A stretch of DNA of 64,000 nucleotides from Anaerobaca lacustris (lineage in GTDB: Bacteria > Planctomycetota > Phycisphaerae > Sedimentisphaerales > Anaerobacaceae), in NCBI RefSeq assembly GCF_030012215.1, contig NZ_JASCXX010000016.1, forward strand, positions 1 through 64,000, written 5' to 3'. Every line of letters begins with the position of its first letter. The stretch's first letter is position 1. Made by a program: the position numbers and the translations under genes. Positions 2,339 to 18,440 of this stretch are shown piece by piece. The notes beneath the pieces are model-generated. The model was not told the DNA's origin and searched no databases. It saw only the letters and a program-made list of their open reading frames with translations.

Positions 2339-4045
2339 ATGATGCGTATCGACCCGGGCAAAATTCTCCAACGCATTCTCCGGTTCCTGCACCTGAGCCC
2401 TCTGTCGCTGGCGGAGAAGTGCCGGATCATGTTCGGGGCGGCGGTGCTGTTCAGCCTGGCCATCGCGCTGCTGATCCCCTACATCTGGATGAGCCAATTG
2501 ACCACGAAGGTGCTGCTGGATACGAACAAGGCGCGCGTCGAGTCCCTTCTCCTTCCCATCCACTTCCAGTTGAAAGCCCTGTCGCAGATGCCGTTGCCGC
2601 CGGAGTTGACCGGTCGCGGGACAGCGAAAGACCCGAACGACCCGGGGGTGGTCTGGATTGCCTTGCGCGGGCAGCGCGGGCACGACGAACTGGAACGCCT
2701 CACCCGCACGCAGCGGAGGCTGTTCGACAAGCTCATCGCCGATGACGCGCGCGACGACGACATCGAGCTCGGCCGGTCCGACGGGCGGCTGCGAAGCGAT
2801 TATGTGCGTCTGTTTCGCGCGACGGAGACGTGCGTGAGCTGTCACAATCCGCAGGGCTCGGCCGGGCCGTTTGCGCTGAATGAGATCGTCGGTGTGGCCG
2901 CCGTCCGCACGCATGGGATCGGAAGCGACGTGAGGAAGACGGTCTTTCTCAATCGCATCTGGACGATCATGGCCGGACTGATCGGCGCCACCGGCGCGAT
3001 TGTGGCGTTCTATTGGATCACGCAACGCGTCATTCTGCGTCCGATTCGCCAGTTGCGCTCCCTGGCCAACAACGTGGCGGAGGGCAACCTCGACATCCGC
3101 AGTTCGATCGCCACGGGCGACGAGTATGAGCGGCTCAGCGAGGCGTTCAATCACATGCTCGACCACCTCCAGGGCGCCCAGGAGAAGCTGCGCCAGGCCA
3201 ATCGGCAGCTTGACGCGAAGATCGCCGAGCTGAGCGAGCGGAACATCGAACTGTACAAGGCGAACAAGCTCAAGAGCGAGTTTCTGGCGAACATGTCGCA
3301 CGAGTTCCGCACGCCGCTGAACGCCATTCTCGGGTTCGCGCAGGTGCTGCGCGAGAAGCCGGGCCTGTTGCGGCGCGACAAGGGGCAGCGTTACGCCGAG
3401 AACATCATCAGCAGTGGCAACAGCCTGTTGAGTATGATCAACGACCTTCTCGACCTGGCGAAGGTGCAGGCGGGGCGGATGGAGCTGCACATCGAGCCGG
3501 TGTCGCTGCCGCAGCTTTGCGACTCGCTGGTCTCGGCGTTTTCGCTGCTGGCCAGGAAGCAGAGGATCCGGATTCGAACGCAGGTGGCCGACGACGTCCC
3601 GGTCATCATGACCGACGGCGGCAAGGTCCAACAGGTGCTGTACAACTTCCTGAGCAACGCGGTGAAATTCACCCCGGCCCGCGGGCTGATCGAGATCCGC
3701 GCGGCCATGCTCGACGACAGAACGGTGCGCATCGCCGTGACCGACACCGGCTGCGGGATCGCCGAGGCCGATCGCGAGGCGATCTTCGAGAAGTTCCGGC
3801 AGGTGGACGGCTCTTTGACGCGGGAGACCCCGGGAAGCGGGCTGGGCTTGGCGATCAGCAAGGAACTGGCCCAGATGCTGGCCGGAAAGATCGGCATGGA
3901 GAGCCAGGTCGGCGTCGGCTCGACCTTCTGGCTGGACATCCCGGCCACGTTCCCACCGGAGAAGAAGCGGTCGCGAACCGGCTCGACCCAGCCGCGAGCC
4001 CAACTCGACAAGGAAGGACAGACGCATGCAGAACAAGAGGCATAA
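2339..4045 (+). CDS. Membrane sensor histidine kinase with CxxCH (haem-type) sensor domain
   Basis: About 568 residues. A first membrane segment (GAAVLFSLAIALLIPYIWM, about 32-51) is followed by an extracytoplasmic domain of about 150 residues carrying ETCVSCHNP, a CxxCH haem-attachment motif as in DUF3365/Tll0287-like sensors. Then come a second membrane helix (about 206-226), a HAMP domain, a coiled coil, HisKA with the phospho-acceptor in MSHEFRTPLN (about residue 320), and HATPase_c with DTGCGIA and GSGLGLAISKE. It probably senses redox or gas state and phosphorylates a response regulator, but none is encoded nearby. Its 3' end overlaps the next gene by 20 bp, indicating co-transcription. 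Start choice between TTG 2333, ATG 2339 and ATG 2342 is uncertain. Confidence 0.88.
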   Translation: MMRIDPGKILQRILRFLHLSPLSLAEKCRIMFGAAVLFSLAIALLIPYIWMSQLTTKVLLDTNKARVESLLLPIHFQLKALSQMPLPPELTGRGTAKDPNDPGVVWIALRGQRGHDELERLTRTQRRLFDKLIADDARDDDIELGRSDGRLRSDYVRLFRATETCVSCHNPQGSAGPFALNEIVGVAAVRTHGIGSDVRKTVFLNRIWTIMAGLIGATGAIVAFYWITQRVILRPIRQLRSLANNVAEGNLDIRSSIATGDEYERLSEAFNHMLDHLQGAQEKLRQANRQLDAKIAELSERNIELYKANKLKSEFLANMSHEFRTPLNAILGFAQVLREKPGLLRRDKGQRYAENIISSGNSLLSMINDLLDLAKVQAGRMELHIEPVSLPQLCDSLVSAFSLLARKQRIRIRTQVADDVPVIMTDGGKVQQVLYNFLSNAVKFTPARGLIEIRAAMLDDRTVRIAVTDTGCGIAEADREAIFEKFRQVDGSLTRETPGSGLGLAISKELAQMLAGKIGMESQVGVGSTFWLDIPATFPPEKKRSRTGSTQPRAQLDKEGQTHAEQEA

Positions 4046-6104
4046 CTCCAGCAGATACCACAAGACCTGTCTCGCTTCGCTGTTGATCGTGGTTTGCGCG
4101 CTGCCGGTGCCCGCGGCCGTCCTGCAATCGCCACACCCGTTCTCGATCCACGACATGGTGGCGATGGATCGCATCTCCGACCCACAGGTCTCGCCCGACG
4201 GTACGTGGATTGCGTTCGTGGTTCGCACGACCGACCTGGAGGCCAATCGAGGGCGGTCCAACCTGTGGCTTGTCTCCCGCGACGGCACGGACCTCCGGCA
4301 GCTTACCTCGCATCCCGACTCCGACTCCAATCCGCGCTGGGGCCCCGACAGCAAGAGCGTCTGGTTCCTTTCGAGTCGATCGGGGTCCAGTCAGGTCTGG
4401 CGGATTGCGATCGACGGCGGCGAGGCCCGGCAGGTGACGGATGAGCCGCTCGACGTCGGCAATCTGATCGTCTCGCCCGACGGGCGGCACATCGGCTTTA
4501 CGATGGAGGTCTTTCCCGACGCGGCGACGGCCCAGGCGACCAGGGAGAGACTCGACGCCGTCGAGCAGCGCAAGGCCAGTGGGCGGATCTACGAGCGGCT
4601 GTTCGTGCGCCACTGGGACACGTGGAAGGACGGCCGGCGGTCGCATCTGTTCGTCAGGCCGGCGGAGGGCGGCCCGGCGGTGAACGTCATGGCCGGGATG
4701 GACGCCGACACGCCTTCGAAGCCGTTCGGCGGGCCCGAGGAGATGACGTTCACTCCGGACGGCAAGGCGGTTGTCTTCAGTGCCAAGGATGTGGGACGCG
4801 AGGAGGCCTGGTCGACGAACTTCGATCTGTTCTACAGCCCCATCGATGGCTCGCAGCCCCCGAAATGCCTGACGCAGGAGAACGAGGCGTGGGACACGCA
4901 TCCGGTCTTCTCGCCCGACGGCAAGACGTTGGCGTACCTGGCGATGAGTCGGCCGGGGTACGAATCGGACCAGTTCCAGATCGTGCTGCGCGACTGGCCG
5001 GACGGCTCGAAACGGGTCCTGACGGGGAGCTGGGACCGCAGTCCGTCTTCGATCGGCTTCTCGGCCGACGGGCGTGCGCTCTACGCGACGGCGGCGAACC
5101 TCGGTCAGCGCTCGCTCTTTGCCATCGATGTCGCAGACGGCCGCGTGCGGACCGTGGTCCGGGACGGGGCTGTCCACGGCTTCGCCGTTGCGGGCGAGCG
5201 GATCGTTTATGCGTTGAGCACCCTGCAATCGCCGGCCGAGCTTTTCTCGGTCCGGCCCGACGGCACCGATGTCAGGCGTTTGACCGACATCAATCGGGAG
5301 AAGGTCGCCGCAGCGAAGATGGGCGATTACGAGCAGTTCACATTCGCCGGCTGGAATGGTGAGACGGTGTACGCCTATGTGGTCAAGCCGGTGGATTTCG
5401 ACCCGGCCCGGAAGTACCCGGTGGCGTTCCTGATCCACGGCGGGCCCCAGGGCTCGTTCGGAAACGTCTTCCATTACCGCTGGAACCCGCAGGCATACGC
5501 CGGGGCCGGATACGCCGCGGTCATGGTCGACTTCCACGGCTCGGTCGGCTACGGGCAGGCCTTCTGCGATTCGATCCGGGGCGACTGGGGAGGCAAGCCG
5601 CTGGTGGACCTTCAGAAGGGCCTGGAAGCGGCGCTCGAACGGTATCCGTGGATGGACGGCGACCGCGTCGGTGCCTTGGGCGGGTCGTTCGGGGGCTACA
5701 TGGTCAACTGGATCGCGGGTCAGTGGCCCGACCGCTTCCGATGTCTGGTCAACCACGACGGCAACCTCGACGAGCGGATGGCTTACTTCGACACCGAAGA
5801 GCTGTGGTTCCCCGAGTGGGACCACGTCGGCACACCCTGGGAGAACCCGGAAGGCTATGAGAAGCACAATCCCGTTCGATTCGTGCAGAACTGGAAGACG
5901 CCCATGCTCGTGATCCACGGGGCGCATGATTTCCGCGTCGTCGATACGCAGGGGCTCGGCACGTTCAACGCGCTGCAACGGCGGGGAATCCCCAGCAAGC
6001 TGCTGTACTTTCCAGACGAGAACCACTGGGTGCTCAAACCCCAAAACTCGATCCAGTGGTACGACACGGTCGTCGCCTGGCTCGACCAGTGGCTGAAGAA
6101 CTGA
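4026..6104 (+). CDS. Secreted S9 family prolyl oligopeptidase / dipeptidyl aminopeptidase
   Basis: 692 residues. A signal peptide (ASLLIVVCALPVPAA) is followed by an N-terminal beta-propeller with PD40-type repeats (QVSPDGTWIAFV, RWGPDSKSVWFL, VFSPDGKTLAYL) and a C-terminal alpha/beta hydrolase domain. The catalytic triad is visible: Ser in GGSFGGYM (about residue 554), Asp in HGAHDFRV (about 637) and His in DENHWVLK (about 668). The family (DPP IV/V, acylaminoacyl peptidase) cleaves short peptides, here probably in the periplasm. It begins inside the 3' end of the histidine kinase gene in another frame, so translation is likely coupled. Exact substrate specificity cannot be read from sequence. 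Confidence 0.93.
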   Translation: MQNKRHNSSRYHKTCLASLLIVVCALPVPAAVLQSPHPFSIHDMVAMDRISDPQVSPDGTWIAFVVRTTDLEANRGRSNLWLVSRDGTDLRQLTSHPDSDSNPRWGPDSKSVWFLSSRSGSSQVWRIAIDGGEARQVTDEPLDVGNLIVSPDGRHIGFTMEVFPDAATAQATRERLDAVEQRKASGRIYERLFVRHWDTWKDGRRSHLFVRPAEGGPAVNVMAGMDADTPSKPFGGPEEMTFTPDGKAVVFSAKDVGREEAWSTNFDLFYSPIDGSQPPKCLTQENEAWDTHPVFSPDGKTLAYLAMSRPGYESDQFQIVLRDWPDGSKRVLTGSWDRSPSSIGFSADGRALYATAANLGQRSLFAIDVADGRVRTVVRDGAVHGFAVAGERIVYALSTLQSPAELFSVRPDGTDVRRLTDINREKVAAAKMGDYEQFTFAGWNGETVYAYVVKPVDFDPARKYPVAFLIHGGPQGSFGNVFHYRWNPQAYAGAGYAAVMVDFHGSVGYGQAFCDSIRGDWGGKPLVDLQKGLEAALERYPWMDGDRVGALGGSFGGYMVNWIAGQWPDRFRCLVNHDGNLDERMAYFDTEELWFPEWDHVGTPWENPEGYEKHNPVRFVQNWKTPMLVIHGAHDFRVVDTQGLGTFNALQRRGIPSKLLYFPDENHWVLKPQNSIQWYDTVVAWLDQWLKN

Positions 6105-6160
6105 ATGGGTCCTGTTGGTCTCATAGGGCCTATAAACATGGGGTTCACAGGTCCGTTAGG
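6105..6160 (+). repeat. Intergenic imperfect 9-nt tandem repeat (GGTCCTATA-like)
   Basis: Between the S9 peptidase stop and the next gene the sequence runs in degenerate 9-nt units related to GGTCCTATA (for example GGTCCTGTT, GGTCTCATA, GGGCCTATA). Read as codons this would give a collagen-like Gly-Pro-X pattern, but it is out of frame with the downstream gene and is better explained as repeat DNA. A related element lies at 49301-49329 before another start codon. Confidence 0.5.
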
Positions 6161-6183
6161 ACGTATTGAACCCAGGAGATGGC

Positions 6184-6804
6184 ATGGCTGCTGCAAGGAA
6201 GATCGTTGCGATTGTGGGCACGTATCGCAAGGGCCGGGTGATCGATACGGCGGTCTCGGAGGCGCTGTGTGGGGCCGAGGACGGCGGCGCCGCGACCGAG
6301 ACGATTTACCTGATCGACAGGCACATCGAGTTCTGCACGAACTGTCGGACGTGCATGCAGCAGGCGGACGTCGGCCGGCGGGGCCGATGCGTTCTGGACG
6401 ATGAAATGGAGGCGGTTCTTCAAGCAATCGACGAGGCCGACGGTCTCGTGCTGGCTTCGCCGGTGAACTTCTACAACGTCACCGCCGTCACCCGGCGGTT
6501 CATGGAGCGGCTCGTCGGCCATGCCTATTGGCCCTGGGGGCAGCCAGCGCCGAAGGTGCGCGATAAGACACAGAACAAGAGGGCCGTCACGATCACGTCC
6601 AGCGCGTGCCCCGCGTTTTTCGCCAGGATCGCCATGCCGGGTGGAAGAAAGGCCCTGAAAGCCATTGCCGAGACCCTGGGCGCGAAGGTCCAGACCTCGC
6701 TGCTTTTCGGCATGGTCGCCCAGAGCCCCGACGCCACCCTGAACGACAAGGACCGCGCCAAGGCCTTCCTGGCCGGCCGCCGCCTCGCCAAGTCCCTCGC
6801 CTGA
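6184..6804 (+). CDS. NAD(P)H-dependent FMN reductase / iron-sulfur flavoprotein-like
   Basis: 206 residues with a flavodoxin-like fold. The N-terminal IVAIVGTYRKGRV forms the FMN phosphate loop (family G-S/T-x-R-K-x-s pattern) and ASPVNFYNVT corresponds to the flavin-contact 'sPvYf' segment. A cysteine cluster CTNCRTC followed 11 residues later by another Cys resembles the compact motif of Isf-type iron-sulfur flavoproteins, although the last spacing is longer than usual. It probably transfers electrons between NAD(P)H and a quinone, metal or protein acceptor. ATG 6184 was chosen because AGGAG sits 5 nt upstream (6174-6178); a TTG at 6166 in the same frame lacks a site. It ends convergent to the M56 gene. 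Confidence 0.82.
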   Translation: MAAARKIVAIVGTYRKGRVIDTAVSEALCGAEDGGAATETIYLIDRHIEFCTNCRTCMQQADVGRRGRCVLDDEMEAVLQAIDEADGLVLASPVNFYNVTAVTRRFMERLVGHAYWPWGQPAPKVRDKTQNKRAVTITSSACPAFFARIAMPGGRKALKAIAETLGAKVQTSLLFGMVAQSPDATLNDKDRAKAFLAGRRLAKSLA

Positions 6805-6977
6805 TTGCTCGGGTGTATACGATCACCTCCGCATATTGTGTGCTGTTTATCCGCGCCCCTTGTGGCAGAGAATCTCGCATCATCCGGCGTCTCAGATTGC
6901 CGCTCTGGCGGCCTGCACCGAACGAACCGCTTATCATCAAGGGTCGGTGGGGCGATCGTCTTCGACGGAGAATCCTC

Positions 6978-9900
6978 CTACGAACTTGGTCTCGCCTCGG
7001 GTGCCGTTCCCTCGTCTGTGAAGCGATCCAAGTACGGGTGGACGTCAACTTCCCAAAGAAGACCGGCAGGCCGCAGTTTGATGGATTCATCGCAATCGAA
7101 GGACAGCCACTTGCCGTCGGGCGACCAGCGGACGGAATAGCCGGAACTCACTTTCCCCGCCGGTTCGGCCCATTTGCCGTCCGCCAACGTCACCGTAAAC
7201 ACACGCAGCTCGGGGTCTTTGTGATCGCTCGATCGCGGTCTCGCCTCCAAATCCAAGGCCAACGTCTGCCCATCCGGGGAGCATTCTATGGCGATACAGC
7301 GACCCCACATGGGATCAAGCAAACCGCCGACCTGCCGCTGCTGCCCGCTGGCGGCATCGAAGGTTAAGAGCCTCCGGCCCCAAAGAGCCACAAGCTTCTC
7401 ACCCTGAGGGCACCATGTGTACTCGAATGCATCATGGTAATCGTCATAGGTCGCCTCCATGAGCCGCCTGGGCTCTCCTCCAGCGGCAGAGACGATAAAG
7501 AGTTCTCGCGTAGTGCCCAATGCGCGGGTGTAGAGTGAATACGCAATCCACGTTCCATCCGGAGACCACGTATGGCCGATATATTTGGCGGTATTGGCGA
7601 TATCGCGCGCGGTGTCTTCGGATAGCCGGCACACCCGCAAGGTAGAGCGGGTCGAGTTCGGCTCATAGGTAATCCAGGAGATTGCGCTACCATCCGGCGA
7701 CCATTGGTGGCCTACTACTTTCTTGTCGGAAGGCCCCGTGAATTTGACAGGTGGACGTCCGTCGGTATAGGCGATCCACAAGTCGCCGTCACAGACCAGA
7801 GAAAGTCTTGACTCATCCGGGCTCCAGCCCGGGCGTTCCGCACGACCCTTGTCAAAGACTTTCACCGGCGTCCCAACAGGGCGGCCCGTTCCGGCGGAAA
7901 TGGACGCCACCCAGTACTCGATTGTCTCCTTATCCAGCTCCGAACTGAACAGCACTCGGTCGGCTTTGGGCGAGAGAGACATCTGCGCGAGTGTCCCTCC
8001 GACGGACGCGGGCAATTGGACGGGGTAGGGCGCAGGGCCTGACAATGGCACGACCCAGTAGCCCTTCTCCTGCCGATATTGCCGCCATGCGAAGATGGAC
8101 CTGCTGTCGGACGACCAGTGGTGATCGGAAGCGGAAAGGATCATCCCCCAGGCGGGATTGATCGGCGCGCCTCCAGCCGCGGGGACGACTCGCAGCGAAT
8201 CCGTCCATTCAAATGACGGCCTGTAAAAGACCATCCTCTCGCCATCCGATGACCAGGCAAGAAACGTGCCGACATCGTCCGGCACCGCAATGTCGACCGC
8301 AAGGGCATCGGCGACTCTGACAAACTGGAGGCTTTGTCCCCCGTAGAATTGGTAGAGAATCCACTTTCCGTCGCGAGACCAAGAGGGATCCACCCTCTGC
8401 TTGACGTCAATGAGTTTTCGCGGTTCCCCACCCTGGGAGGGGATCAGGCAGATGCTGTTATCACCGCGCCAGTAAGCGATCCATCGACCATCCGGTGACC
8501 AGCCTCCCGGGACTCGACGCGAGGTTGGTTCTGCGGTGATCTGCGTTGCCACCCCGTCCTCGACGGAAAGGACCATGAGGTGTCCCTCGCGTCCCTCGTA
8601 GACGAATCGTTTCGAATCGGGCGACCACTGCACCTGGTGATGGTACCAGTATATGTCATCGTCCACGAGCTTTCTGGCCGGTCCGGTTGGTTTGCCTGTC
8701 TGTGGAGAAACCGGCACGACCCAGATCCCGCCTGAGTAGAACGCGACCATCGTTCCATCGGGCGACCAGGAGCTGCGCCCGGCCGGCAGATCGGCGAAGG
8801 GTCGCACATCTTCGTCACCCACGGGGATGACGTACTTTCCGTAGGAGAGAAATCTCCCGTTGGGAGACATCCCCAAGTCCGTGTTATACTCAATCACGTC
8901 CTTGCTGCCCGTGATCGCGCAGACCTTGCGGAACTGGAGTCCGGTGTTCGGGTCTGAGATAGAATCTTCCGCTTGCCTCGATGGCGCCTGACGGGCATCT
9001 GCTCCCTGGTTGCCGATGGAGAGAGAACCGATGCCGCTCCCCTGGGCATTGATCAGCGATACGCATGCCAATGCCACGATTAAGACCAGGGCGGCGGGCG
9101 ACCAACGGTATGACTGATGTCTAAACGTCGCGATCATGGCAATCCTCCTTTTCAATTGGGACTGGTTTTCGAGGATGCCGGCCATCGCCGGCAGACGTCG
9201 GGCGCACGAGAAACGCTCGAGCAAACCCACAATCGTTCGACCGTATTGCTGTGATTCGTCTTGTCCCGTGCGGGTTAGCACGAGAGCGTCGCAGGCCAGT
9301 TCCCGGTCGGCACGCATCTTGTGGAAGGCCAGCCAGACCAGCGGGTTGAACCAGTGCAGGATTTGCAGCAGGCTGGCCAGCCATCCGAGGTAGATGTCGT
9401 GCCGTTTCAGGTGGGCCAGCTCGTGCAGAAAGATGTATCGCAGCTCTTCGCCGCTGGCGGTCTCGATCAGGTCGCGCGGCAGCAGCAGGCGAGGCCGAAG
9501 GAAGCCGAACAGGGCTGCCGTATTGACCCGATCGCTCGGCACCAGCGCCACGATCGTCTCGACACCCATCTGCGACTTGCACCGCTCGAACAGCTCCAGG
9601 ATTGATTCGGTGACCAGCGGACGTTCGCGTTTGACGATCCGCCATAGGGTGAAGTTGCCTGCAAGGAGGTAGCCACCGAGGACGACAGTCCCGATCAGCC
9701 AGAACAGGGGCAGCCGATGTCGTACTACCGCCAAAGCGGATGTCTTCGGGGACTCCGTCTTGGCGGCTCTTTCTGCTCTTTGTGGTGCCGTCTGTGGCCC
9801 GCCGCCGGTCGGCCTTGATGGCGATATTAGCTTCGGTTCCGTCGGTCCTGACGCCTGCCCAGGGTCAGAATGGTCTTCCTGCCAAACCCCGTGGATACGT

Positions 9901-10148
9901 GCGTGCGACCGACCTCGTGGAATCGATGCGGGAATCAAACTACGCAGACTCAGAGGGCTGGGAGGCGCCCAAGGCAGAACCATGCGCAGCAGCAGCACCA
10001 GCCACAGGGCATGACACCAGCGTGGGCCCAGCCTTTTGCCCAGGAGCCTCTGGGCAGCCAGGATCAGGCAGATCACCATGCTGGCGATCACGGTCGTCTC
10101 CAGGAGCCAGGCAAAGAACGGCTGTATGTGGGTCAGAAACGCGTCCAT
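6978..10148 (-). CDS. BlaR1-like M56 zinc metallopeptidase fused to a 14-repeat PD40 (TolB-like) beta-propeller
   Basis: 1056 residues. The N-terminal part is an M56 membrane peptidase with hydrophobic segments TVIASMVICLILAAQ, LWLVLLLRMVLPW and LFWLIGTVVLGGYLLAG, zinc motif HELAH (about 240-244) and a downstream DRELACDALVL glutamate region. A further membrane segment (PAALVLIVALACVSLINA, about 410-427) precedes a large extracytoplasmic region with 14 PD40-type repeats (WSPDGTMVAFY, WSPDGRWIAYW, WSPDGKWLSFD and others), enough for two seven-bladed propellers. In known BlaR1/MecR1 systems the C-terminal part is a penicillin-binding sensor; here a propeller replaces it, so the ligand is unknown. 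The gene starts 2 bp after blaI on the same strand and should act as its antirepressor. The frame is open further upstream, but MDAFLTHIQPFF is the natural start. Confidence 0.88.
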   Translation of the reverse strand: MDAFLTHIQPFFAWLLETTVIASMVICLILAAQRLLGKRLGPRWCHALWLVLLLRMVLPWAPPSPLSLRSLIPASIPRGRSHARIHGVWQEDHSDPGQASGPTEPKLISPSRPTGGGPQTAPQRAERAAKTESPKTSALAVVRHRLPLFWLIGTVVLGGYLLAGNFTLWRIVKRERPLVTESILELFERCKSQMGVETIVALVPSDRVNTAALFGFLRPRLLLPRDLIETASGEELRYIFLHELAHLKRHDIYLGWLASLLQILHWFNPLVWLAFHKMRADRELACDALVLTRTGQDESQQYGRTIVGLLERFSCARRLPAMAGILENQSQLKRRIAMIATFRHQSYRWSPAALVLIVALACVSLINAQGSGIGSLSIGNQGADARQAPSRQAEDSISDPNTGLQFRKVCAITGSKDVIEYNTDLGMSPNGRFLSYGKYVIPVGDEDVRPFADLPAGRSSWSPDGTMVAFYSGGIWVVPVSPQTGKPTGPARKLVDDDIYWYHHQVQWSPDSKRFVYEGREGHLMVLSVEDGVATQITAEPTSRRVPGGWSPDGRWIAYWRGDNSICLIPSQGGEPRKLIDVKQRVDPSWSRDGKWILYQFYGGQSLQFVRVADALAVDIAVPDDVGTFLAWSSDGERMVFYRPSFEWTDSLRVVPAAGGAPINPAWGMILSASDHHWSSDSRSIFAWRQYRQEKGYWVVPLSGPAPYPVQLPASVGGTLAQMSLSPKADRVLFSSELDKETIEYWVASISAGTGRPVGTPVKVFDKGRAERPGWSPDESRLSLVCDGDLWIAYTDGRPPVKFTGPSDKKVVGHQWSPDGSAISWITYEPNSTRSTLRVCRLSEDTARDIANTAKYIGHTWSPDGTWIAYSLYTRALGTTRELFIVSAAGGEPRRLMEATYDDYHDAFEYTWCPQGEKLVALWGRRLLTFDAASGQQRQVGGLLDPMWGRCIAIECSPDGQTLALDLEARPRSSDHKDPELRVFTVTLADGKWAEPAGKVSSGYSVRWSPDGKWLSFDCDESIKLRPAGLLWEVDVHPYLDRFTDEGTAPEARPSS

Positions 10149-10150
10149 TC

Positions 10151-10531
10151 CTATCCCTTTCTCTTCTGTTCGAGGATGTCCTGGAGTTCTTTGATTTCCT
10201 GGGCTGACAGGTCGGCGTGTTCGAGGAAGGCCGCCAGCGCGGGCTTCATGGCGCCTTGGTAGACCCGCCGAACAAAGGACTTCGTTTCGTAACGGATGCA
10301 CTCGGATTCCGCCACGGCCGCTGAATAGCGGTACCGTAGTCCCTCTTCTTCGAAGCGCACCGCGCCTTTCTTCACCAGCCGACTGATCAGGGTCTTAACG
10401 GTCCGAGGCTTCCACTGGACCTCGCCAGTCAAGGCCTGGACGACCTCGTTGGCGGTCTGGGGACCCTTCTCCCACAGCACCTGCATGATGCGCCATTCCG
10501 ATTCTGCGATCCTCGGCAGTTCCTTACCCAT
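10151..10531 (-). CDS. BlaI/MecI/CopY family transcriptional repressor
   Basis: 126 residues, typical for the family. The N-terminal winged helix (AESEWRIMQVLWEKGPQTANEVVQ, quoted only in part by position 9-32; recognition helix in KPRTVKTLISRLVKKGAV) is followed by the C-terminal dimerisation helices. BlaI proteins bind TACA-N2-TGTA operators and are inactivated by proteolysis driven by their M56 partner, which here follows 2 bp downstream. ATG 10531 has AAGGAGAG upstream. Two matching operators lie in its own promoter (10548-10597), so the pair should be autoregulated. No beta-lactamase gene is present; the divergent gene is dnaB, whose promoter lies more than 140 bp away and is probably not controlled. 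Confidence 0.93.
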   Translation of the reverse strand: MGKELPRIAESEWRIMQVLWEKGPQTANEVVQALTGEVQWKPRTVKTLISRLVKKGAVRFEEEGLRYRYSAAVAESECIRYETKSFVRRVYQGAMKPALAAFLEHADLSAQEIKELQDILEQKRKG

Positions 10532-10547
10532 ATCTGCTCTCCTTGAT

Positions 10548-10597
10548 TACAAATGTAGTCCAAAAGCAGTGTATTACATATGTAGTCAATCGGTCAA
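10548..10597 (-). promoter_or_regulatory. blaI promoter with two BlaI-type operators
   Basis: On the minus strand, TTGACC (10597-10592), an 18-bp spacer and TACACT (10573-10568) form a promoter. TACATATGTA at 10575-10584, a perfect palindrome, lies in the spacer. TACAAATGTA at 10548-10557 lies just downstream of the expected transcript start. Both fit the TACA-N2-TGTA core known for BlaI/MecI operators. Their centres are 27 bp apart, about two and a half helical turns. Confidence 0.85.
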
Positions 10598-10738
10598 GTG
10601 AAAAAAATGAAAATTTCTGCAGCCGGTCCAGGATTCGCGTTCCACAAGCACAGTACGTCCGACGGCAATTGCAGGAGAGGCCTTTTTCGTGGCGTTCCTT
10701 TGGCCCGACGTGCCGGTGTCCGCAGGCGGAAACTGTGT

Positions 10739-10767
10739 TTGACGCTGGGTAGGGGGTCGGGTAGAAT
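10739..10767 (+). promoter_or_regulatory. Probable sigma-70-type promoter of the dnaB-bamA-lpx cluster
   Basis: TTGACG (10739-10744), 17-bp spacer, TAGAAT (10762-10767). It is the only good promoter-like match seen between the divergent blaI gene and dnaB, and it gives a leader of about 85 nt before the TTG start at 10858. Confidence 0.65.
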
Positions 10768-10857
10768 GCCGGCTTATCTTGCCTTCCTGGGTTGCCTGTT
10801 GGCCCGAAGGGAAGGCCCGGTCTCGATCCAACAGCCGGCCGACAAGGAGGGCCGACT

Positions 10858-12288
10858 TTGCCATTGAAGGAGAACAAACGGGTTTCGCGCAGCGCGAACG
10901 CACCGGCGGAGAAGAGGAACCCTCCGGCGGAGATGGCGATGTTGCGCAGCATGCCCGAGTCGTTGCCGGCCGAGGCGGCGGTGCTCGGCTCGATGATCGT
11001 CGATCCGCGCTGCATCGGGGACGTGGTCGAGCAGGTGGACCGTACGGCGTTTTACCACAGCGAGCATCAGATCATCTTCGACGCGATTCTGGCGTTGTAT
11101 GAGAAGAACCACGGCGAAGGGATCGACGGGCTGCTGGTCCGCGACGAACTGGATCGGAACGGTCAGTTGGAGGCCGTCGGCGGTCTGGACTATCTGCGTC
11201 GCGTGATGGAGACGGTCCCATCGTCGGCCAATGTGGCGTACTACACCGACGTGGTCAAGGAGAAGATGCTGCTTCGCGAGACCATCGCGGCCGCGACGGA
11301 CATTCTCAACGACGCCTACGACGAGTCGGGCAGCGCGATCGAGAAGCTCGACGAAGCCGAGCGGCGGATCTTCGCGGTCACGGACAAGCGGATCACCAAC
11401 GCCGCCGTGGCGCTGAAGGACCTGGTGACGAAGGCTTACGAGCTGATCGAAAAGCGCGAAGGCAGTCACGTCACGGGCCTCTCGACGGGTTTTTACGAAC
11501 TGGACGATCTGACGTGCGGGCTGCAAAAAGGAGAGATGGCGATCATCGCCGCCAGGCCCAGTATGGGCAAGACGGCGCTCGTGTTGAATGTGGCCGAGCG
11601 AATCGGCATCGTGGACAAGCAACCCCTGGCCATTTTCTCGCTGGAAATGGGCCGGCAGCAGCTTGCCGAGCGGTTCTTGTGCAGTTACAGCGGCGTCGAT
11701 GCCCAGTTGGTGCGAAAGGGCATGCTGGACACCGAACACTATCGCAAGCTGGTCGAGGCATGTGGGGCGATTTCGGAGGCCCCGATCTTCATCGACGACA
11801 CGTCGGCGCTGTCGCCGCTGGAGATGCGGGCCAAGACCCGTCGTCTCAAGAGCGCCTACAACATCCAGTGCGTCATGATCGACTACCTTCAGTTGATGCA
11901 CCTGGGGACCGGGCGGGTCGAATCCCGCCAGCAGGAAATCTCGACGATTTCGCGCTACCTGAAGTCGTTGGCGCGGGAATTGGACGTGCCTGTGGTGGTC
12001 CTGAGCCAGTTGAACCGGGCGGCCGAAGGCCGGGAAGGGCATCGCCCGCGCATGAGCGACCTGCGCGAGAGCGGCAGCATCGAGCAGGACGCCGACGTGG
12101 TGATGCTGTTGCACCGCGAGGACTACTACCATCGCGGCGAGCCGGACTATGAGCCCAACAACAAGGCGGAGATCATTATCGCCAAACAGCGTAACGGTCC
12201 GACCGGGACCGTGGAACTGACGTTTCGGGACAAGTGCACGCGATTCGAGAATCTGGCGCAGATCGAGCAGGAGTCGGTCCCGTTTTAG
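10858..12288 (+). CDS. dnaB: Replicative DNA helicase DnaB
   Basis: 476 residues; the hexameric helicase that unwinds DNA at the replication fork. The N-terminal primase-interacting domain (LPAEAAVLGSMIVDP, about 37-51) is followed by the RecA-like domain with Walker A ARPSMGKTAL (about 232-241), Walker B around VMIDYLQLM, and SQLNRAAEGR plus DLRESGSIEQDADVV typical of DnaB. A TTG start at 10858 was chosen because AAGGAGG lies 7 nt upstream (10844-10850); the frame is open to 10792 without a ribosome site. It heads a plus-strand run that continues into envelope biogenesis genes; bamA begins 44 bp after its stop. Confidence 0.97.
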   Translation: MPLKENKRVSRSANAPAEKRNPPAEMAMLRSMPESLPAEAAVLGSMIVDPRCIGDVVEQVDRTAFYHSEHQIIFDAILALYEKNHGEGIDGLLVRDELDRNGQLEAVGGLDYLRRVMETVPSSANVAYYTDVVKEKMLLRETIAAATDILNDAYDESGSAIEKLDEAERRIFAVTDKRITNAAVALKDLVTKAYELIEKREGSHVTGLSTGFYELDDLTCGLQKGEMAIIAARPSMGKTALVLNVAERIGIVDKQPLAIFSLEMGRQQLAERFLCSYSGVDAQLVRKGMLDTEHYRKLVEACGAISEAPIFIDDTSALSPLEMRAKTRRLKSAYNIQCVMIDYLQLMHLGTGRVESRQQEISTISRYLKSLARELDVPVVVLSQLNRAAEGREGHRPRMSDLRESGSIEQDADVVMLLHREDYYHRGEPDYEPNNKAEIIIAKQRNGPTGTVELTFRDKCTRFENLAQIEQESVPF

Positions 12289-12332
12289 CCGGGGCCTCGC
12301 GCGGGATGGGTTCGCCGTTCACGAGAGAACCA

Positions 12333-14495
12333 ATGCAGGATACGATGTTCGTCCTCCTCATGTCGATGGTGTTGGCCGCTTCGAGCGGGCTGCGTGCCGC
12401 CGAGCCGGCCGCCGGCGCCGAGGTCCTGTCGGCGGGCGATCGAGGCGGCATCATCAAGTCGATTGAGTTCGAGGGCAACCAGAAGTTCAAGGACCACGTC
12501 CTGCGTCAGCGGCTCGGTTTCGAGTTGGGCGACCGGCTCGATTCGTTTCTGGCCGAAGGAGGCCGCCTGACCATCGCGGAGGTCTACCGCAAGATCGGCT
12601 ACGCTTACGTCGAGGTCTCGCTCGATCGAGACCAGTTGTCGCGCGGCCATCTGCTCTACCGAATCGACGAGGGGGCCCGGGTCCAGATCGAATCGGTCAG
12701 CTTCGTCGGCAACGAGGTGATGGCGTCGGGAACGCTGAACAAAGTCGTCAAGACGACGGACCGCAAGTGGCTGCTCTGGCCGTTCTACTATACGGAAGGC
12801 GCCGTGGAAGAAGACCTGGACCGCCTCCGCGAGTTCTACTACGACCGCGGGTACCTCGACTACAAGATCACGGCCAACACGGAGTTCACCGGCGACAGGA
12901 GCGCGGTGCGCGTGACGTTTGTCATCGAGGAGGGGCCGGTGTACCGGGTGGGCGACATCGTCCTCTCGGGCAACGCGCATTTCACCAACGACGAGTTGCG
13001 GGCGACCATGACGTTGCGCGAGGGGCAGATCTACCTCAAGCCCACGGCGGTCCGCGACGCTCAGGAGATCGCCCGGATGTATCGGGAGATCGGGTACATC
13101 GATGCCGAGGTCCGACCGCGACCGAGGTTCGGTCCGTCGCCCGGCCAGCACATGGTCAGCGTGGAGTTCGAAGTCGTCGAGGGCGGCCGGTTCCGGATCG
13201 GCCGGATCGACGTCACCGGCAACGAGGTGACGCAGGACAAGGTCGCTCGACGGGTCCTGGACGAGTACGAATTCACGCCGGGCAACTGGTACAACGGGCG
13301 GATCGCGCCGAAGGAAGGCGGGGGTCTCCTCGAACGGTACGTCCAGCACTCGGCCGTGGCCGAGCAGGTGCTGATCCGTCCGGTGGACCCGGAGGACGGC
13401 GCCGCGGATCGCAAGGACGTTCGCGTGGATATCAAGGAGGGCAGCACGGGGATGATCATGCCGGGCGTCGGGGTCAGCAGCGACAGCGGGGTCATCGGAC
13501 GCCTGGTCTACCAGCAGCGGAATTTCGACATCACCGATTGGCCGGACGACCCGAGCGGATTGCTGACGCCGTGGAAGTACTTCAAAGGCGCCGGGCAGAG
13601 CTTCAGCGTCACGCTCGAGCCCGGAACCGAGTACAGCCAGTACTACGTCGAGTTCGTCGATCCGTACTGGCGCGACCGACCCACGACGCTCAACGTCCTC
13701 GGGCGCAGTTGGGAGCGGTTCCGGGAAAGCTACGACGAGGGACGTCTCAAGGGTTACGTCGGGTTCGAACAGCGGCTCAAGGGGCGATGGAGGCGGAGCA
13801 TCGGGTTCCGCGCCGAGAACGTCACGGTCGACGATCTGGATTGGGATGCGCCGAAGGAGATCCGCGACGTCAAGGGCAGCACCCAATTGTACGGCGTCAA
13901 GCTCGGGCTCGGCGAGACGGCCGTGGACGATCGCTACAGGCCGAGTCGGGGCTACGCGGTGGGCGCCGAGTACGAGCAGGTGACGGGCGACTTCACCTTC
14001 GGCATCCTGGAAGGCCGATACACCCGCTACTTCACCCTGCACGAAAACGTGCTGGGGCACAAGACGGTCCTGGCCGGCAAGATTCGCGCCGCGACCATGG
14101 TGGGCGATGCGCCTCCGTTCGAGAAGTTCTACGGCGGGGGGACCGGTCCCTATGGCCTGCGCGGTTTCCGGTACCGGGGCGTCAGCACCCGCGGGCTTCA
14201 GACGAACGTCGAGTCGCCCCGGCGCAAGGACCCGATCGGCAGCGACTGGATCTTCCTGGCCGGGGCCGAGATCACAGTGCCCATCATCAGCGAGAACTTC
14301 GCCGTGCTGTTCTTCACCGACAGCGGGACCATCGATACGGGCAGCTACCGCGTCTCCATCGGTACCGGGCTTCAGATCATGGTGCCTCAGCTCTTCGGGC
14401 AGGTGCCGATGCGGTTTGAGTTGGCCACGCCGCTTCTGAAGGACCGGGCGGACGAGAGGCAGGTCTTCAGCTTCTCGGCCGCGGGGATGTTCTGA
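12333..14495 (+). CDS. bamA: Outer membrane protein assembly factor BamA
   Basis: 720 residues. A signal peptide (MFVLLMSMVLAASSGLRAAE) is followed by tandem POTRA domains (IKSIEFEGNQKFKDHVLRQR, IESVSFVGNEVMAS, YRVGDIVLSGNAHFTNDELR, FRIGRIDVTGNEVTQDKVAR) and a C-terminal Omp85 beta-barrel with FYGGGTGPYGLRGFRYRG (the family G-x-x-s-v-R-G-y/f motif) and a final aromatic residue in SFSAAGMF. It inserts beta-barrel proteins into the outer membrane. ATG 12333 follows GAGAG at 5 nt and gives a clean signal peptide; ATG 12306 would add nine non-signal residues. Its neighbours skp and the lpx genes are the usual partners. Confidence 0.94.
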   Translation: MQDTMFVLLMSMVLAASSGLRAAEPAAGAEVLSAGDRGGIIKSIEFEGNQKFKDHVLRQRLGFELGDRLDSFLAEGGRLTIAEVYRKIGYAYVEVSLDRDQLSRGHLLYRIDEGARVQIESVSFVGNEVMASGTLNKVVKTTDRKWLLWPFYYTEGAVEEDLDRLREFYYDRGYLDYKITANTEFTGDRSAVRVTFVIEEGPVYRVGDIVLSGNAHFTNDELRATMTLREGQIYLKPTAVRDAQEIARMYREIGYIDAEVRPRPRFGPSPGQHMVSVEFEVVEGGRFRIGRIDVTGNEVTQDKVARRVLDEYEFTPGNWYNGRIAPKEGGGLLERYVQHSAVAEQVLIRPVDPEDGAADRKDVRVDIKEGSTGMIMPGVGVSSDSGVIGRLVYQQRNFDITDWPDDPSGLLTPWKYFKGAGQSFSVTLEPGTEYSQYYVEFVDPYWRDRPTTLNVLGRSWERFRESYDEGRLKGYVGFEQRLKGRWRRSIGFRAENVTVDDLDWDAPKEIRDVKGSTQLYGVKLGLGETAVDDRYRPSRGYAVGAEYEQVTGDFTFGILEGRYTRYFTLHENVLGHKTVLAGKIRAATMVGDAPPFEKFYGGGTGPYGLRGFRYRGVSTRGLQTNVESPRRKDPIGSDWIFLAGAEITVPIISENFAVLFFTDSGTIDTGSYRVSIGTGLQIMVPQLFGQVPMRFELATPLLKDRADERQVFSFSAAGMF

Positions 14496-14558
14496 TGGGC
14501 GATTGGATTCCATGAAAATGGGACTTGTGAGCAGACCGAAAGAAAGAAAGGGTGCTTT

Positions 14559-15152
14559 ATGAAAACAAAGACGATCGTAATGGGTATGATGATCTGCGCT
14601 GTTGCCATTCTGGCGAGCTTCCAGTACGGCCACGCCGGTCCGGCGGCGACGTCGCCTTCGCGAATCGGGGTCGTCAGCGTTCGCACCGTGTTCAACCAGT
14701 GTCAGCCGCAGGCGCAGTACCGCGCTCAGGCGATCGCCAGACAGAATCGCGCCCGGGCCGAGCTGGAGGCCCAGGCCAAGATGATTGAAGCGGCCGACGC
14801 CGAGTTGAAGACGCTCCGGCCCGGAACGGCCGACTACCTCCAGCAACTGCAAAAGGTGCTCAAGGGCCGTGCCGAACTGGAAAGCCAGCAGGAATTCCTC
14901 AACCAGCAGCGCATGTCGCAGGACAAGATGTGGATGGAAAAGCTGTACCAGGAGACGCTGAAGATCGTCAGTGTGGTGGCCCGGGAGAAGGGGCTGGAGA
15001 TGGTGCTGGAACGAACGGAGCCGGAATTTCCAACCTCCAGCGAGGAATTGATGGCGACGTTCAGTACGCACAAGGTCCTGTATTCGGGCGGCGCTGTCGA
15101 TCTGACCGCCGAGGTAATGGCCCGGCTGGACAAGCTGGACCTCAAGCCGTAG
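14559..15152 (+). CDS. skp: OmpH/Skp family periplasmic chaperone
   Basis: 197 residues. A signal peptide (VMGMMICAVAILASFQYGHA, about 7-26) precedes a short beta segment (RIGVVSVRTVFNQC) and a long charged, coiled-coil-prone region (about 55-140), the 'tentacle' layout of Skp/OmpH. These chaperones hold unfolded outer membrane proteins for BamA. The bamA-skp-lpxD order is widely conserved in diderm bacteria, which supports the call despite low sequence identity within the family. The start has an AAAGGGTG-type site upstream. Confidence 0.88.
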   Translation: MKTKTIVMGMMICAVAILASFQYGHAGPAATSPSRIGVVSVRTVFNQCQPQAQYRAQAIARQNRARAELEAQAKMIEAADAELKTLRPGTADYLQQLQKVLKGRAELESQQEFLNQQRMSQDKMWMEKLYQETLKIVSVVAREKGLEMVLERTEPEFPTSSEELMATFSTHKVLYSGGAVDLTAEVMARLDKLDLKP

Positions 15153-15223
15153 TGTGGGGCAGACTGTGAGCCGTAGCCGGCTCGGATGCGTTCTACAGTG
15201 TGACTCGTTTTCTCGGGGTTCGA

Positions 15224-16279
15224 ATGGCCTTGACAGTAGCAGGGTTGGCCCAGCGGCTTGGCGCCGAGGTGATCGGCGGCCCGGAGGGTTTGGATCGCGT
15301 GATCACGTCGGTTCAGCCTCTGGCGGCAGCCGGGGCGGCCGACGTGGCGTTCGTGACAGACCCGAAACATGAATCGGCGGCCCGGAAGTGTGCGGCGGCT
15401 GCGATCATCGTGGCCCGCCCGATCGATGGGGTGCCCGCGCCGCAGTTGATCGTCGCCAGCGTCAATGCGGCGCTCATCGCGACCCTGGAGCACTTCGCCC
15501 CGAAGCTCGCGCCGCCAGTCGAAGGGGTCGATCCCTCGGCTCGCATCGGCGTTGGTGTTCGGCTGGCCGATGGCGTCAGCATCGGTCCCTATGTGGTGAT
15601 CGGCGACCACGTCGAGATCGGCCCGGGCACCGTGATCGCCAACGGATGCACCATCGGCGAAGGGTCGAAGATCGGGGCCGACTGCCGTCTGGACAGCTTT
15701 GTGACGGTCTACCATCGCTGTACGATCGGCAACCACGTGATCGTGCAGACCCACAGCGCCATCGGTTCGATGGGGTTCGGGTACGCCTATCTCGACGGCC
15801 GCCACCAGTTCGTTCCGCACAACGGCGGCGTGGTGATCGAGGATTTCGTCGAAATCGGCGCCAACACGTGCATTGACAGGGCGAAATTCGGCAATACGAT
15901 AATCGGCGCCGGCACCAAGATCGACAATCTCGTCCAGGTCGCACACAACGTGGTCATCGGCAAGGGCTGTCTGATCGCGGCGCAAGGGGGTGTGGCGGGC
16001 AGTTGCCGGTTGGGCGACGGGGTCGTTCTGGCCGGACAGGTGGGCCTGGCCGACAATATCGAGATCGGGGCCGGCACGATGGTCGGGGCGCAGTCGGGTG
16101 TGATGAGCAGTGTGCCCGGCGGGCAGAAACTTGCCTGGACGCCCGCGGTGGATATGAAAGAGGCGATCCGGATCGTCGCGCATCTGTTGCGCCTGCCGAA
16201 ACTCGCACAACAATTGAAGCGCCTCACGGCGAAGGTAGAAAAGCTTGAAGCTGCAAACCACGATCAAGGGCGAGGGTAA
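15224..16279 (+). CDS. lpxD: UDP-3-O-acylglucosamine N-acyltransferase LpxD
   Basis: 351 residues, family about 340. The third step of lipid A synthesis: transfer of a second hydroxyacyl chain from acyl-ACP to UDP-3-O-acyl-GlcN. An N-terminal uridine-binding domain ([16 protein letters not shown]) precedes a left-handed beta-helix of hexapeptide repeats ([20 protein letters not shown] and following) and a C-terminal helix. The LpxD signature region [15 protein letters not shown] and the following [20 protein letters not shown] segment are present. ATG 15224 was preferred to GTG 15200, since homology begins at [12 protein letters not shown]. Its 3' end overlaps lpxC by 35 bp. Confidence 0.96.
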
Positions 16280-17555
16280 GCTGGCCGGCAGAGGGCTGTT
16301 TGGGGGCGAAGAAGCGCGGGTAACCTTTCGTCCTGCGCCCGAGGACGCGGGGGTGGTGTTCATCCGAACCGACGTGCCGGGAACGGTGCGCATCCCGGCC
16401 GTCGTCCCCAACGTCGCCGAGCGCAGCCGGCGCACGAGCATCAAGAAGGGCGAGGTCAGCATCGAGACCGTCGAGCATTGTATGGCGGCGATCCGCGCCC
16501 TCGAAATCGACAACCTCATTGTCGAAGTCGATGGGCCCGAGTTGCCGGCCATGGATTGCAGCAGTGCGGACTACTTTCACGCCCTCAAGGAAGCCCAGAC
16601 CGTCGAACAGAAAAACCCGCGTCGTGAATTCGTGATCAAGAAGCCTCTGACGATCAGCGCCGGTGACGCGACGATCTACGCCCTGCCCTATTCGGACACG
16701 GGGTTCAACATCACCTACGATCTGGATTACAGCGGCCACTCGGGGATCGGCCGACAGATCTTCAGCTATCGGCTCACGCCGGAGAGCTTCGAGACCACCA
16801 TGGCGCCGGCGCGCACCTTTCTGCTCGAAGTCGAGGCCCGCCAGTTCCAGGCGCGGGGCATCGGCACGCACATCGGTCCGCGCGACATTCTGGTCATCGA
16901 TTCGGACGGACCGATCAAGAACGCCTACCGTTTCCCGAACGAGTGCGTCCGGCACAAGATCGTCGACCTGATCGGCGATCTGGCGCTGGTCGGCCGGCCG
17001 ATCGTCGGTCGGGTCGTGGCCTACAAGAGCGGCCACTCGCTCAACCAGCAGTTGGCGCGCAAGCTCTACGAGCAGGCCGAGCAGCAGGACCGAATCGAGC
17101 AGTTCGGGACCGATGCGGTGCTCGACATCCGACGGATTCAGAAGATTCTGCCCCATCGGTATCCGTTCCTCCTCGTCGACAAGATCATCGAGATCGAGGG
17201 GGATACGAAGATTCGCGGCGTCAAGAACGTGACGTTCAACGAGATGTTCTTCCAGGGGCATTTTCCCGGGACCCCGATCATGCCGGGCGTGCTGATCGTC
17301 GAGGCGATGGCCCAGGTTTCGGGCCTTCTGTTCGCCCAGAAGCTCGAGCACACCGGGCAGTTGGCCCTGCTGCTGAGCATGGACGGCGTCAAGCTGCGCA
17401 AGGCGGTGGTTCCGGGCGACCAGTTGATTCTGTCGGCTGAGACGATTCGACTGCGAAAGAGGACCGCGCACTGCCGGTGCCGGGCCATGGTCGGTGACGC
17501 GGTCGCCGCCGAGGCCGAGATCAAGTTCATGCTCGTGGACGATGACAAGATGTGA
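16245..17555 (+). CDS. lpxC/fabZ: Bifunctional UDP-3-O-acyl-GlcNAc deacetylase / beta-hydroxyacyl-ACP dehydratase (LpxC-FabZ fusion)
   Basis: 436 residues. Residues 1 to about 285 are LpxC, the committed zinc deacetylase of lipid A synthesis: VEHCMAA holds the first zinc His, [15 protein letters not shown] the HKxxDxxGD zinc and catalytic residues, and SGHSLNQ the general-acid His. Residues from about 295 onward are Fab[18 protein letters not shown], then [16 protein letters not shown] with the active-site His and LIVEAMAQ with the Glu. The fusion ties hydroxyacyl-ACP turnover to lipid A synthesis and is known from Bacteroidetes/Chlorobi and Planctomycetes-group genomes. The start is TTG at 16245, inside lpxD. 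Confidence 0.96.
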
Positions 17556-17618
17556 AGGGGGCCGAACACCAGGGTTTGGTGCAACGTGCAAGATCAGTGA
17601 GAGGCAGGAACGAATACG

Positions 17619-18425: not shown

Positions 18426-18440
18426 TCCGTCGGGAGCACC

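What the first reader, a model, noticed from the sequence alone, without database searches (positions are those of the whole stretch)
6978..10597. BlaI/M56 signalling pair whose sensor is a giant 14-repeat beta-propeller
The repressor and two TACA-N2-TGTA operators are textbook, but the M56 antirepressor carries about 620 extracytoplasmic residues with 14 PD40 repeats instead of a penicillin-binding sensor. No beta-lactamase is adjacent. The system could sense a peptide, glycan or protein ligand and may have a wider regulon.
Basis: partly seen in the sequence, partly recalled or inferred. Interest (0 to 1): 0.7.

Follow-up and report, generated by a model that had tools for sequence, protein, structure and literature searches.

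The report
Antibiotic-sensor protease with swapped propeller receptor
This bacterium carries a gene switch built like the one that lets Staphylococcus detect penicillin, but the penicillin-sensing part is replaced by two propeller-shaped domains predicted to lie outside the cell membrane, so what it detects is unknown.

Summary
Window 10531-10151 (-) is a BlaI repressor; 10148-6978 (-) is one open 1056-aa M56 protein with the conserved gluzincin residues and 14 PD40-type repeats, predicted to form two propellers, not one giant ring. Two operators overlap and follow the operon's own promoter.

A wider regulon is not supported: the operator pair occurs once in the 5.7-Mb genome, here. In 161 genomes of the order it occurs 68 times (reversed control 0); of 30 places examined, 28 lie directly upstream of a BlaI gene.

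The larger finding is exchangeable receptors. M56 proteins of this order (class Phycisphaerae, probably Sedimentisphaerales) carry propellers, LamG, secretin, beta-helix/TPR, DUF4097 or Clp_N/AhpC modules; none of 25 scanned has a penicillin-binding domain. M56 kin in the window's clade (55-63% identical, 7 readable) carry propellers that match the window's poorly or not at all, while more distant M56 proteins carry ones that match throughout. The closest propellers are TPR proteins, one next to an ECF sigma gene.

Best reading: an autoregulated BlaI/M56 proteolytic switch with a non-beta-lactam receptor. Ligand, and any target beyond the operon, unknown. New variant of a known kind.

The parts
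10151..10531 (-). blaI-type winged-helix repressor, 126 aa; Phe102 aligns with the Phe102 at which S. aureus BlaI is cut
   Evidence: Pfam PF03965 8.9e-35; alignment to MecI and BlaI structures; Phe102 numbering; cleavage site from a passage of PMC9834060
6978..10148 (-). M56 anti-repressor with C-terminal double PD40 propeller, 1056 aa
   Evidence: translation, Pfam, AlphaFold2 model, mean pLDDT 77.9, pTM 0.55
9132..10106 (-). M56 region, residues 15-339; HELAH 242-246, Glu283, Asp287, Arg334/335
   Evidence: Pfam; phmmer to BlaR1 8exs/8exp over 200-339; invariant columns; letters
9045..9098 (-). last membrane helix, about residues 351-368, before the part predicted to lie outside
   Evidence: hydropathy 2.19 at 350-368; model helix 351-365
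8214..8963 (-). first predicted propeller, about residues 396-645, 6 repeat motifs
   Evidence: motifs (and by eye); models; no single-ring match of its own
7041..8213 (-). second predicted propeller, about residues 646-1036, 8 repeat motifs
   Evidence: motifs (and by eye); matches to single WD40-type rings in one model and to DPP4 and ODA16 rings in the other
10568..10597 (-). promoter-like site TTGACC-18-TACACT of the blaI operon
   Evidence: promoter scan (2 found in the region against 1.4 in shuffles), sequence
10573..10587 (-). operator 1, GACTACATATGTAAT, inside the -35/-10 spacer and touching the -10
   Evidence: similar layout upstream of related BlaI genes
10546..10560 (-). operator 2, GACTACATTTGTAAT, between the -10 and the start codon

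Best explanation
A self-contained transmembrane proteolytic switch. Without signal, BlaI dimers sit on two operators that overlap and follow the operon's promoter, so little BlaI and M56 is made. The M56 protein spans the membrane with its zinc-protease domain in the cytoplasm and two PD40 propellers outside. A ligand or envelope condition read by the propellers changes the protease, which cuts BlaI at or near Phe102; the operon is derepressed and more receptor and repressor are made. The receptor is not a beta-lactam sensor: in place of the penicillin-binding domain of BlaR1 it has a module from a pool of exchangeable extracytoplasmic domains. Seen in the sequence: both genes, operators, promoter-like site, conserved catalytic residues, mismatch between M56 kinship and receptor type. 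Predicted: topology and fold. Inferred: cleavage, signalling, exchange. Unknown: ligand, and any target besides the operon.
For: BlaI and M56 families. Residues aligned with BlaR1 His201/His205, Glu242, Asp246, Arg293/294 are H242/H246, E283, D287, R334/R335 (alignment; letters; BlaR1 roles from passages of PMC9834060, Glu242 recalled). BlaI Phe102 kept. Operator 1 lies in the promoter spacer, operator 2 downstream of the -10; a similar layout precedes related BlaI genes: 26 of 44 BlaI upstream regions have an exact TACANNTGTA, 25 of the 30 with at least 40% BlaI identity. Paired operators: 68 places in 54 of 161 genomes, 0 for the reversed pattern; of 30 places examined 28 have BlaI directly downstream, 27 of them with an M56 hit in the stretch held. 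Outside location: the protease region between the last two membrane helices must reach BlaI, and the propellers follow the last helix; homologous propeller proteins L103 and L104 begin with what I read as signal peptides. Exchange: at least 5 changes of propeller type are forced by starred branches of the M56 tree.
Against: No experiment. Identity to BlaR1 is low (E 9e-9 over 140 residues). The autocleavage position is Gly-Ile here, not Ser-Phe. No target gene was found, so the physiological output is missing. pTM is 0.55 for the whole protein and 0.69 for the propellers alone; the matches to the second ring differ in blade number between the two models. Hydropathy finds three of the four membrane helices; the second comes from the model alone. 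The M56 tree is a quick one with a warning that long branches meet, and on it propeller type is also clustered (7 changes against 12.2 in shuffles), so much of it is inherited; fast divergence of repeats could mimic part of the exchange.
Confidence: 0.66

Rival explanations
1. Sensor is the output: the circuit controls only its own operon, and what matters is induction of the propeller protein itself (a binding, docking or envelope-bracing protein made when its ligand is present). This is a stricter form of the best explanation.
For: The operator pair is unique to the operon and 28 of 30 pairs examined of 68 in the order precede BlaI; of five neighbour genes sought only dnaB and bamA recur, in 2 of 40 stretches, several of them short; M56 frames reach 4134 aa among the rows listed.
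Against: Single, degenerate or unlinked operators would be missed; known BlaI systems drive other genes (recalled).
Confidence: 0.3
2. Wider regulon: BlaI also represses unlinked genes through single or diverged operators.
For: Nine exact TACANNTGTA sites exist away from BlaI promoters; BlaI regulators with several targets are known (recalled).
Against: 12 palindrome sites against 32 for the reversed pattern, which has the same letters in another order; eight of the nine other sites fall inside an open frame of 120 aa or more, some of which may not be genes, and the ninth (L002) does not; only two one-mismatch copies of the extended operator elsewhere.
Confidence: 0.2
3. It still answers beta-lactams or wall damage indirectly, the propeller docking a penicillin-binding protein or a muropeptide.
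For: The M56/BlaI core is BlaR1-like; BlaR1 homologues without a sensor domain are discussed in PMC9834060 (passage).
Against: No penicillin-binding family in the Pfam scan; NCBIfam BlaR1 model 205 bits against a cut-off of 400; no adjacent beta-lactamase.
Confidence: 0.12
4. The propellers are cytoplasmic, or the frame is a chance fusion of two genes.
For: Propellers of this kind also occur in cytoplasmic proteins (recalled).
Against: One open frame; same architecture in homologues; protease domain between the last two membrane helices; homologous propeller proteins with apparent signal peptides.
Confidence: 0.03

Closest known systems
BlaR1/BlaI and MecR1/MecI of Staphylococcus and Bacillus
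   Same: Repressor family, palindromic operators at the own promoter, M56 gluzincin domain with matching catalytic residues, last membrane helix followed by a receptor domain, repressor Phe102
   Different: No penicillin-binding sensor; two PD40 propellers; no adjacent beta-lactamase or mecA; low sequence identity; Ile in place of Phe at the autocleavage position
BlaR1 homologues that lack the sensor domain (M. tuberculosis type, passage in PMC9834060)
   Same: M56 without a penicillin-binding domain, in a BlaI system
   Different: Those lack the sensor domain; this one has a 640-residue C-terminal part
TPR-PD40 proteins of the same order (L065, L103, L104)
   Same: Propeller homologous over its whole length, 32-33% identity by blastp
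   Different: No M56; L103 lies beside an ECF sigma factor gene, and L104 beside a zf-HC2 (anti-sigma type) protein; L065 and L104 are cut by contig ends on the sigma side
S9 dipeptidyl peptidase, TolB and oligogalacturonate-lyase propellers
   Same: PD40-type fold; bacterial DPP4 7y4f_A matches the second propeller, Z 24.6, rmsd 3.7, 338 aligned
   Different: No alpha/beta-hydrolase domain; TolB model far below its cut-off; lyase activity not tested

Membership tests
BlaI/MecI/CopY repressor family (PF03965) | Profile match over full length | tested here: met
   119.9 bits, cut-off 22.6, model 1-115 of 115
BlaI/MecI/CopY repressor family (PF03965) | Operator TACA-N2-TGTA at its own promoter | tested here: met
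M56 anti-repressor family (PF05569) | Profile match over full length | tested here: met
   216.6 bits, cut-off 31, model 3-296 of 296
M56 anti-repressor family (PF05569) | HExxH plus downstream Glu and Asp/Arg of the gluzincin site | tested here: met
   H242 E243 H246 E283 D287 R335
M56 anti-repressor family (PF05569) | Cleaves BlaI | not testable with these tools
   Only the Phe102 residue is seen to be kept
BlaR1 beta-lactam sensor | C-terminal penicillin-binding (transpeptidase-like) sensor | tested here: not met
   No such Pfam family up to E 0.1; NCBIfam blaR1_generic 205 of 400 bits needed
BlaR1 beta-lactam sensor | Adjacent beta-lactamase or mecA | tested here: not met
   ORFs and Pfam of the two downstream neighbours; the divergent neighbour reads as dnaB
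PD40/WD40-like propeller | Repeat profile | tested here: met
   PF07676 60.5 bits, cut-off 20.9
PD40/WD40-like propeller | Closed propeller fold | tested here: inconclusive
   Second ring matches solved rings; first ring only through double-propeller matches
S9 dipeptidyl peptidase | Catalytic alpha/beta-hydrolase domain | tested here: not met
   Absent in P0001, present in the neighbour 4026-6104
TolB | NCBIfam TolB model above cut-off | tested here: not met
   72.8 of 343 bits

The most novel reading that the evidence does not exclude
In this order of Planctomycetota the BlaI/M56 unit has become a general-purpose receptor chassis: several parallel pairs in one genome, each self-regulated, each with an exchangeable extracytoplasmic module, one module type shared with an ECF-sigma system; the circuit's only target is its own operon, so the receptor protein itself is the induced product.
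Probability: 0.3. Interest if true: 0.72.

Novelty: new variant of a known kind. Interest (0 to 1): 0.52.

Why it matters
BlaR1/BlaI is known mainly as an antibiotic-resistance switch (recalled). If many M56 receptors in a whole bacterial order read something else, the resistance version would be one specialised form of a wider class of transmembrane proteolytic receptors, and the exchangeable domains would let one ask how very different ectodomains drive the same buried protease.

Tried and rejected
Wider regulon by operator search: only the own promoter for the pair. Conserved neighbours as targets: all-against-all blastp of ORFs was too noisy because shadow frames match; a targeted tblastn of five neighbours found dnaB and bamA in L087 and L088 only (its S9 hits are propeller cross-matches). 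dnaB as a target: it has its own promoter-like site at 10739-10767, about 150 bases from the operators; thought unlikely, not excluded. A single 14-bladed ring: thought unlikely, as matches in both models begin near 646-662 and end near 1021-1024. Two independent joinings of this propeller to M56: the propeller tree allows one joining (branch joining the window to the other M56 propellers 88/90, not starred; the window row is a long branch), so not claimed. Literature searches for M56/BlaR1 with planctomycetes, propeller or PD40 showed no description in the listings (PubMed Central open-licence papers only; I saw titles and starts of abstracts, and of PMC9834060 the passages). Ligand from fold matches: not attempted, propellers are too general. 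The phylum-wide searches scored at most 2 or 3 candidates per genome and the order search at most 4, so their absences are weak; one search found 9 of 392 genomes at E <= 1e-40, the eight others matching in the M56 part only.
Full report
Observation. Window 10531-10151 (-) encodes a 126-aa BlaI-type repressor and 10148-6978 (-) a 1056-aa M56 protein. The genes are 2 bases apart. Pfam finds M56 at 15-339 (E 5.6e-64) and PD40 (E 1.3e-16). I count 14 repeat motifs, at about 427, 461, 508, 550, 590, 632, 678, 726, 775, 816, 861, 912, 956 and 1008; 12 come from the expression (its thirteenth match, at 887, was dropped as a GG turn) and two (427 and 726) were read by eye.

Switch parts. The promoter-like site of the operon is TTGACC-18-TACACT at 10597-10568 (the scan found 2 in the region against 1.4 in shuffles). 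Operator 1 (10587-10573) lies in the spacer, operator 2 (10560-10546) between the -10 and the start. TACANNTGTA occurs only at these two places in the window. A similar layout precedes related BlaI genes: 26 of 44 BlaI upstream regions hold an exact site, 25 of the 30 with at least 40% BlaI identity (of the five misses L091 is cut by a contig end, L078 is N, and L092, L081 and L099 have altered sites). BlaR1's zinc-site residues align with H242, E243, H246, E283, D287 and R334/R335, and Phe102 of the repressor aligns with the residue at which S. aureus BlaI is cut (cleavage site from a passage of PMC9834060). The autocleavage position is Gly324-Ile325 here instead of Ser-Phe.

Topology and fold. 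AlphaFold2 with 20 aligned sequences gives mean pLDDT 77.9 and pTM 0.55: helices 2-39, 42-57, 138-174 and 351-365, a protease domain between the last two, then beta strands. Hydropathy supports three of the four as membrane helices (12-30, 146-164, 350-368). Because the protease must reach BlaI in the cytoplasm, the part after the last helix should lie outside; this is inference, helped by the homologous propeller proteins L103 and L104, which begin with what I read as signal peptides. A model of residues 385-1056 with 4 sequences gives pLDDT 77.9 and pTM 0.69. The longer stretch matches double-propeller proteins such as AIP1 and Apaf-1, with large rmsd (3sfz 530 aligned, rmsd 9.9). So two propellers are predicted, 6 plus 8 by motif count; the first ring was not matched by itself and exact blade numbers are unsettled.

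Regulon. In the own genome (5,733,199 bases, 117 contigs) TACANNTGTA has 12 places against 32 for the reversed pattern. Two are this promoter and one (C9) is the promoter of another BlaI/M56 pair. Of the nine others, eight fall inside an open frame of 120 aa or more (some frames may not be genes). A loose pair pattern hits only this promoter, control 0. The extended operator with up to one mismatch gives the two own sites and two others. In 161 genomes of the order the strict pair occurs 68 times in 54 genomes (my sum of the forward column), with 0 for the reversed pattern in every row. I examined the 30 of 68 for which loci were returned: 28 have a BlaI gene directly downstream, 27 of these with an M56 hit in the stretch held; the other two are L199, where the contig ends 33 bases after the site, and L213, where I found neither. 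Neighbour genes give no target: dnaB and bamA recur only in L087 and L088 of 40 stretches. Missed single or degenerate sites remain possible.

Relatives. Contigs of the order's genomes coincide in length with named records: G041:C147 with a Sedimentisphaerales MAG (JAFGEF010000095.1), G072:C248 with a Phycisphaerales MAG (DCUI01000320.1), and G003:C85, of the window's own genus, with a Phycisphaerae MAG (JAAYBV010000018.1). The class is therefore Phycisphaerae; the order is probably Sedimentisphaerales. The whole protein finds matches in 61 of 161 genomes of the order at E <= 1e-30, M56-only matches included. The propeller alone at E <= 1e-25 is found in 14 of 161, the window's genome included, all in the window's own family, and in 1 of 392 sampled genomes of the phylum, the window's own (at most 3 candidates scored per genome). 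M56 is found in 126 of 161 genomes, 114 over the cut-off, with frames up to 4134 aa among the rows listed.

Modules. PF05569 has 8 hits in the own genome, 7 over the cut-off, and PF03965 has 7. Six are BlaI/M56 pairs, this one included; the M56 on C18 has no BlaI hit and the weak BlaI-like hit on C27 no M56. By Pfam the C-termini are PD40 (this one), Clp_N with fn3_3 and AhpC-TSA (C9), DUF4097 (C26), secretin (C2, second), and none named (C25; C2, first). Of the 39 other M56 proteins of the order in the table I scanned 17, chosen mostly among those whose C-terminus blastp had not explained: 9 carry PD40, 3 LamG, 1 secretin, 1 beta-helix with TPR, 1 a DUF3108-like hit just above its cut-off (L081), 1 hits below cut-off only (L098), 1 nothing (L076). 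No penicillin-binding family appears in any of the 25 M56 proteins scanned (1, 4, 10, 7, 3).

Exchange. On an M56 tree of 46 rows the window-type propeller needs 7 changes, at least 5 forced by starred branches; shuffles need 12.2 on average and 1 of 500 is as low, so the type is also clustered (quick tree, long branches meet, labels from blastp coverage and motif counts; L090, L091 and L094, labelled 'other', do carry PD40, and L087 is cut by N). The window's M56 lies in a starred clade of nine rows. Of its eight partners (M56 55-69%, BlaI 76-86%), L087 cannot be read beyond the start; L088, L089, L092 and L093 have propellers that align at 23-27% and only in part; L090, L091 and L094 have PD40 but no blastp match to the window's propeller. 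The more distant L085 and L086 (M56 49 and 45%) align at 28-30% over the whole propeller. I read this as exchange of receptors on conserved BlaI/M56 cores; unusually fast divergence of repeats is an alternative for part of it.

The sister system. The closest propellers of all are not on M56: L103, L104 and L065 (32-33% over the full length by blastp; 39-42% over parts) are TPR-propeller proteins. In L103 the gene follows an ECF sigma factor (Sigma70 r2 and r4) and a 304-aa protein without a Pfam hit, whose homologue in L104 (65% identical) has a zf-HC2 zinc finger as in anti-sigma factors. L104 and L065 are cut by contig ends before a sigma gene could be seen. The same kind of propeller thus occurs in two unrelated transcriptional settings.

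Verdict. A BlaI/M56 core with an unusual receptor. It is a member of the BlaI and M56 families, not of the BlaR1 beta-lactam sensors, and works most likely as an autoregulated proteolytic switch. The listed searches showed no description in print, but they cover open-licence PubMed Central only; domain databases may well list the architecture (recalled, not tested).

Noticed in passing
L030 (G000:C26) 9502-10119 and L029 (G000:C25) 5209-5868: ECF sigma factor genes lie near two other BlaI/M56 pairs of the same genome (Pfam).
   Followed up: partly
L032 (G000:C2) 10639-15546: An M56 protein of 1635 aa with four secretin-type stretches, next to a second BlaI/M56 pair at 7022-10044.
   Followed up: partly
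L099 (G072:C248) 4575-18596: Three BlaI/M56 pairs with PD40-type C-termini in tandem on one strand.
   Followed up: no
G017:C70:23910-24890 and G075:C12:26420-27391: M56 hits in open frames of 4134 and 3376 aa; not fetched.
   Followed up: no
L105 and L199-L227 (30 paired-operator places): Two operator classes: YTACANNTGTARY-like (BlaI 42-65% like ours) and GTACANNTGTAC-like, often with TATCGTAC or CGATAT between (BlaI 24-30% like ours), which hints at insulated parallel systems.
   Followed up: partly
window 4026-6104: A DPP5-like S9 peptidase with its own PD40 propeller lies one gene away from the M56-propeller gene; no S9 peptidase of this kind was found beside it in the 40 related stretches.
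   Followed up: partly
L028 (G000:C9) 8591-14440: A 1949-aa M56 protein with two Clp_N stretches and a C-terminal AhpC/TSA domain.
   Followed up: no
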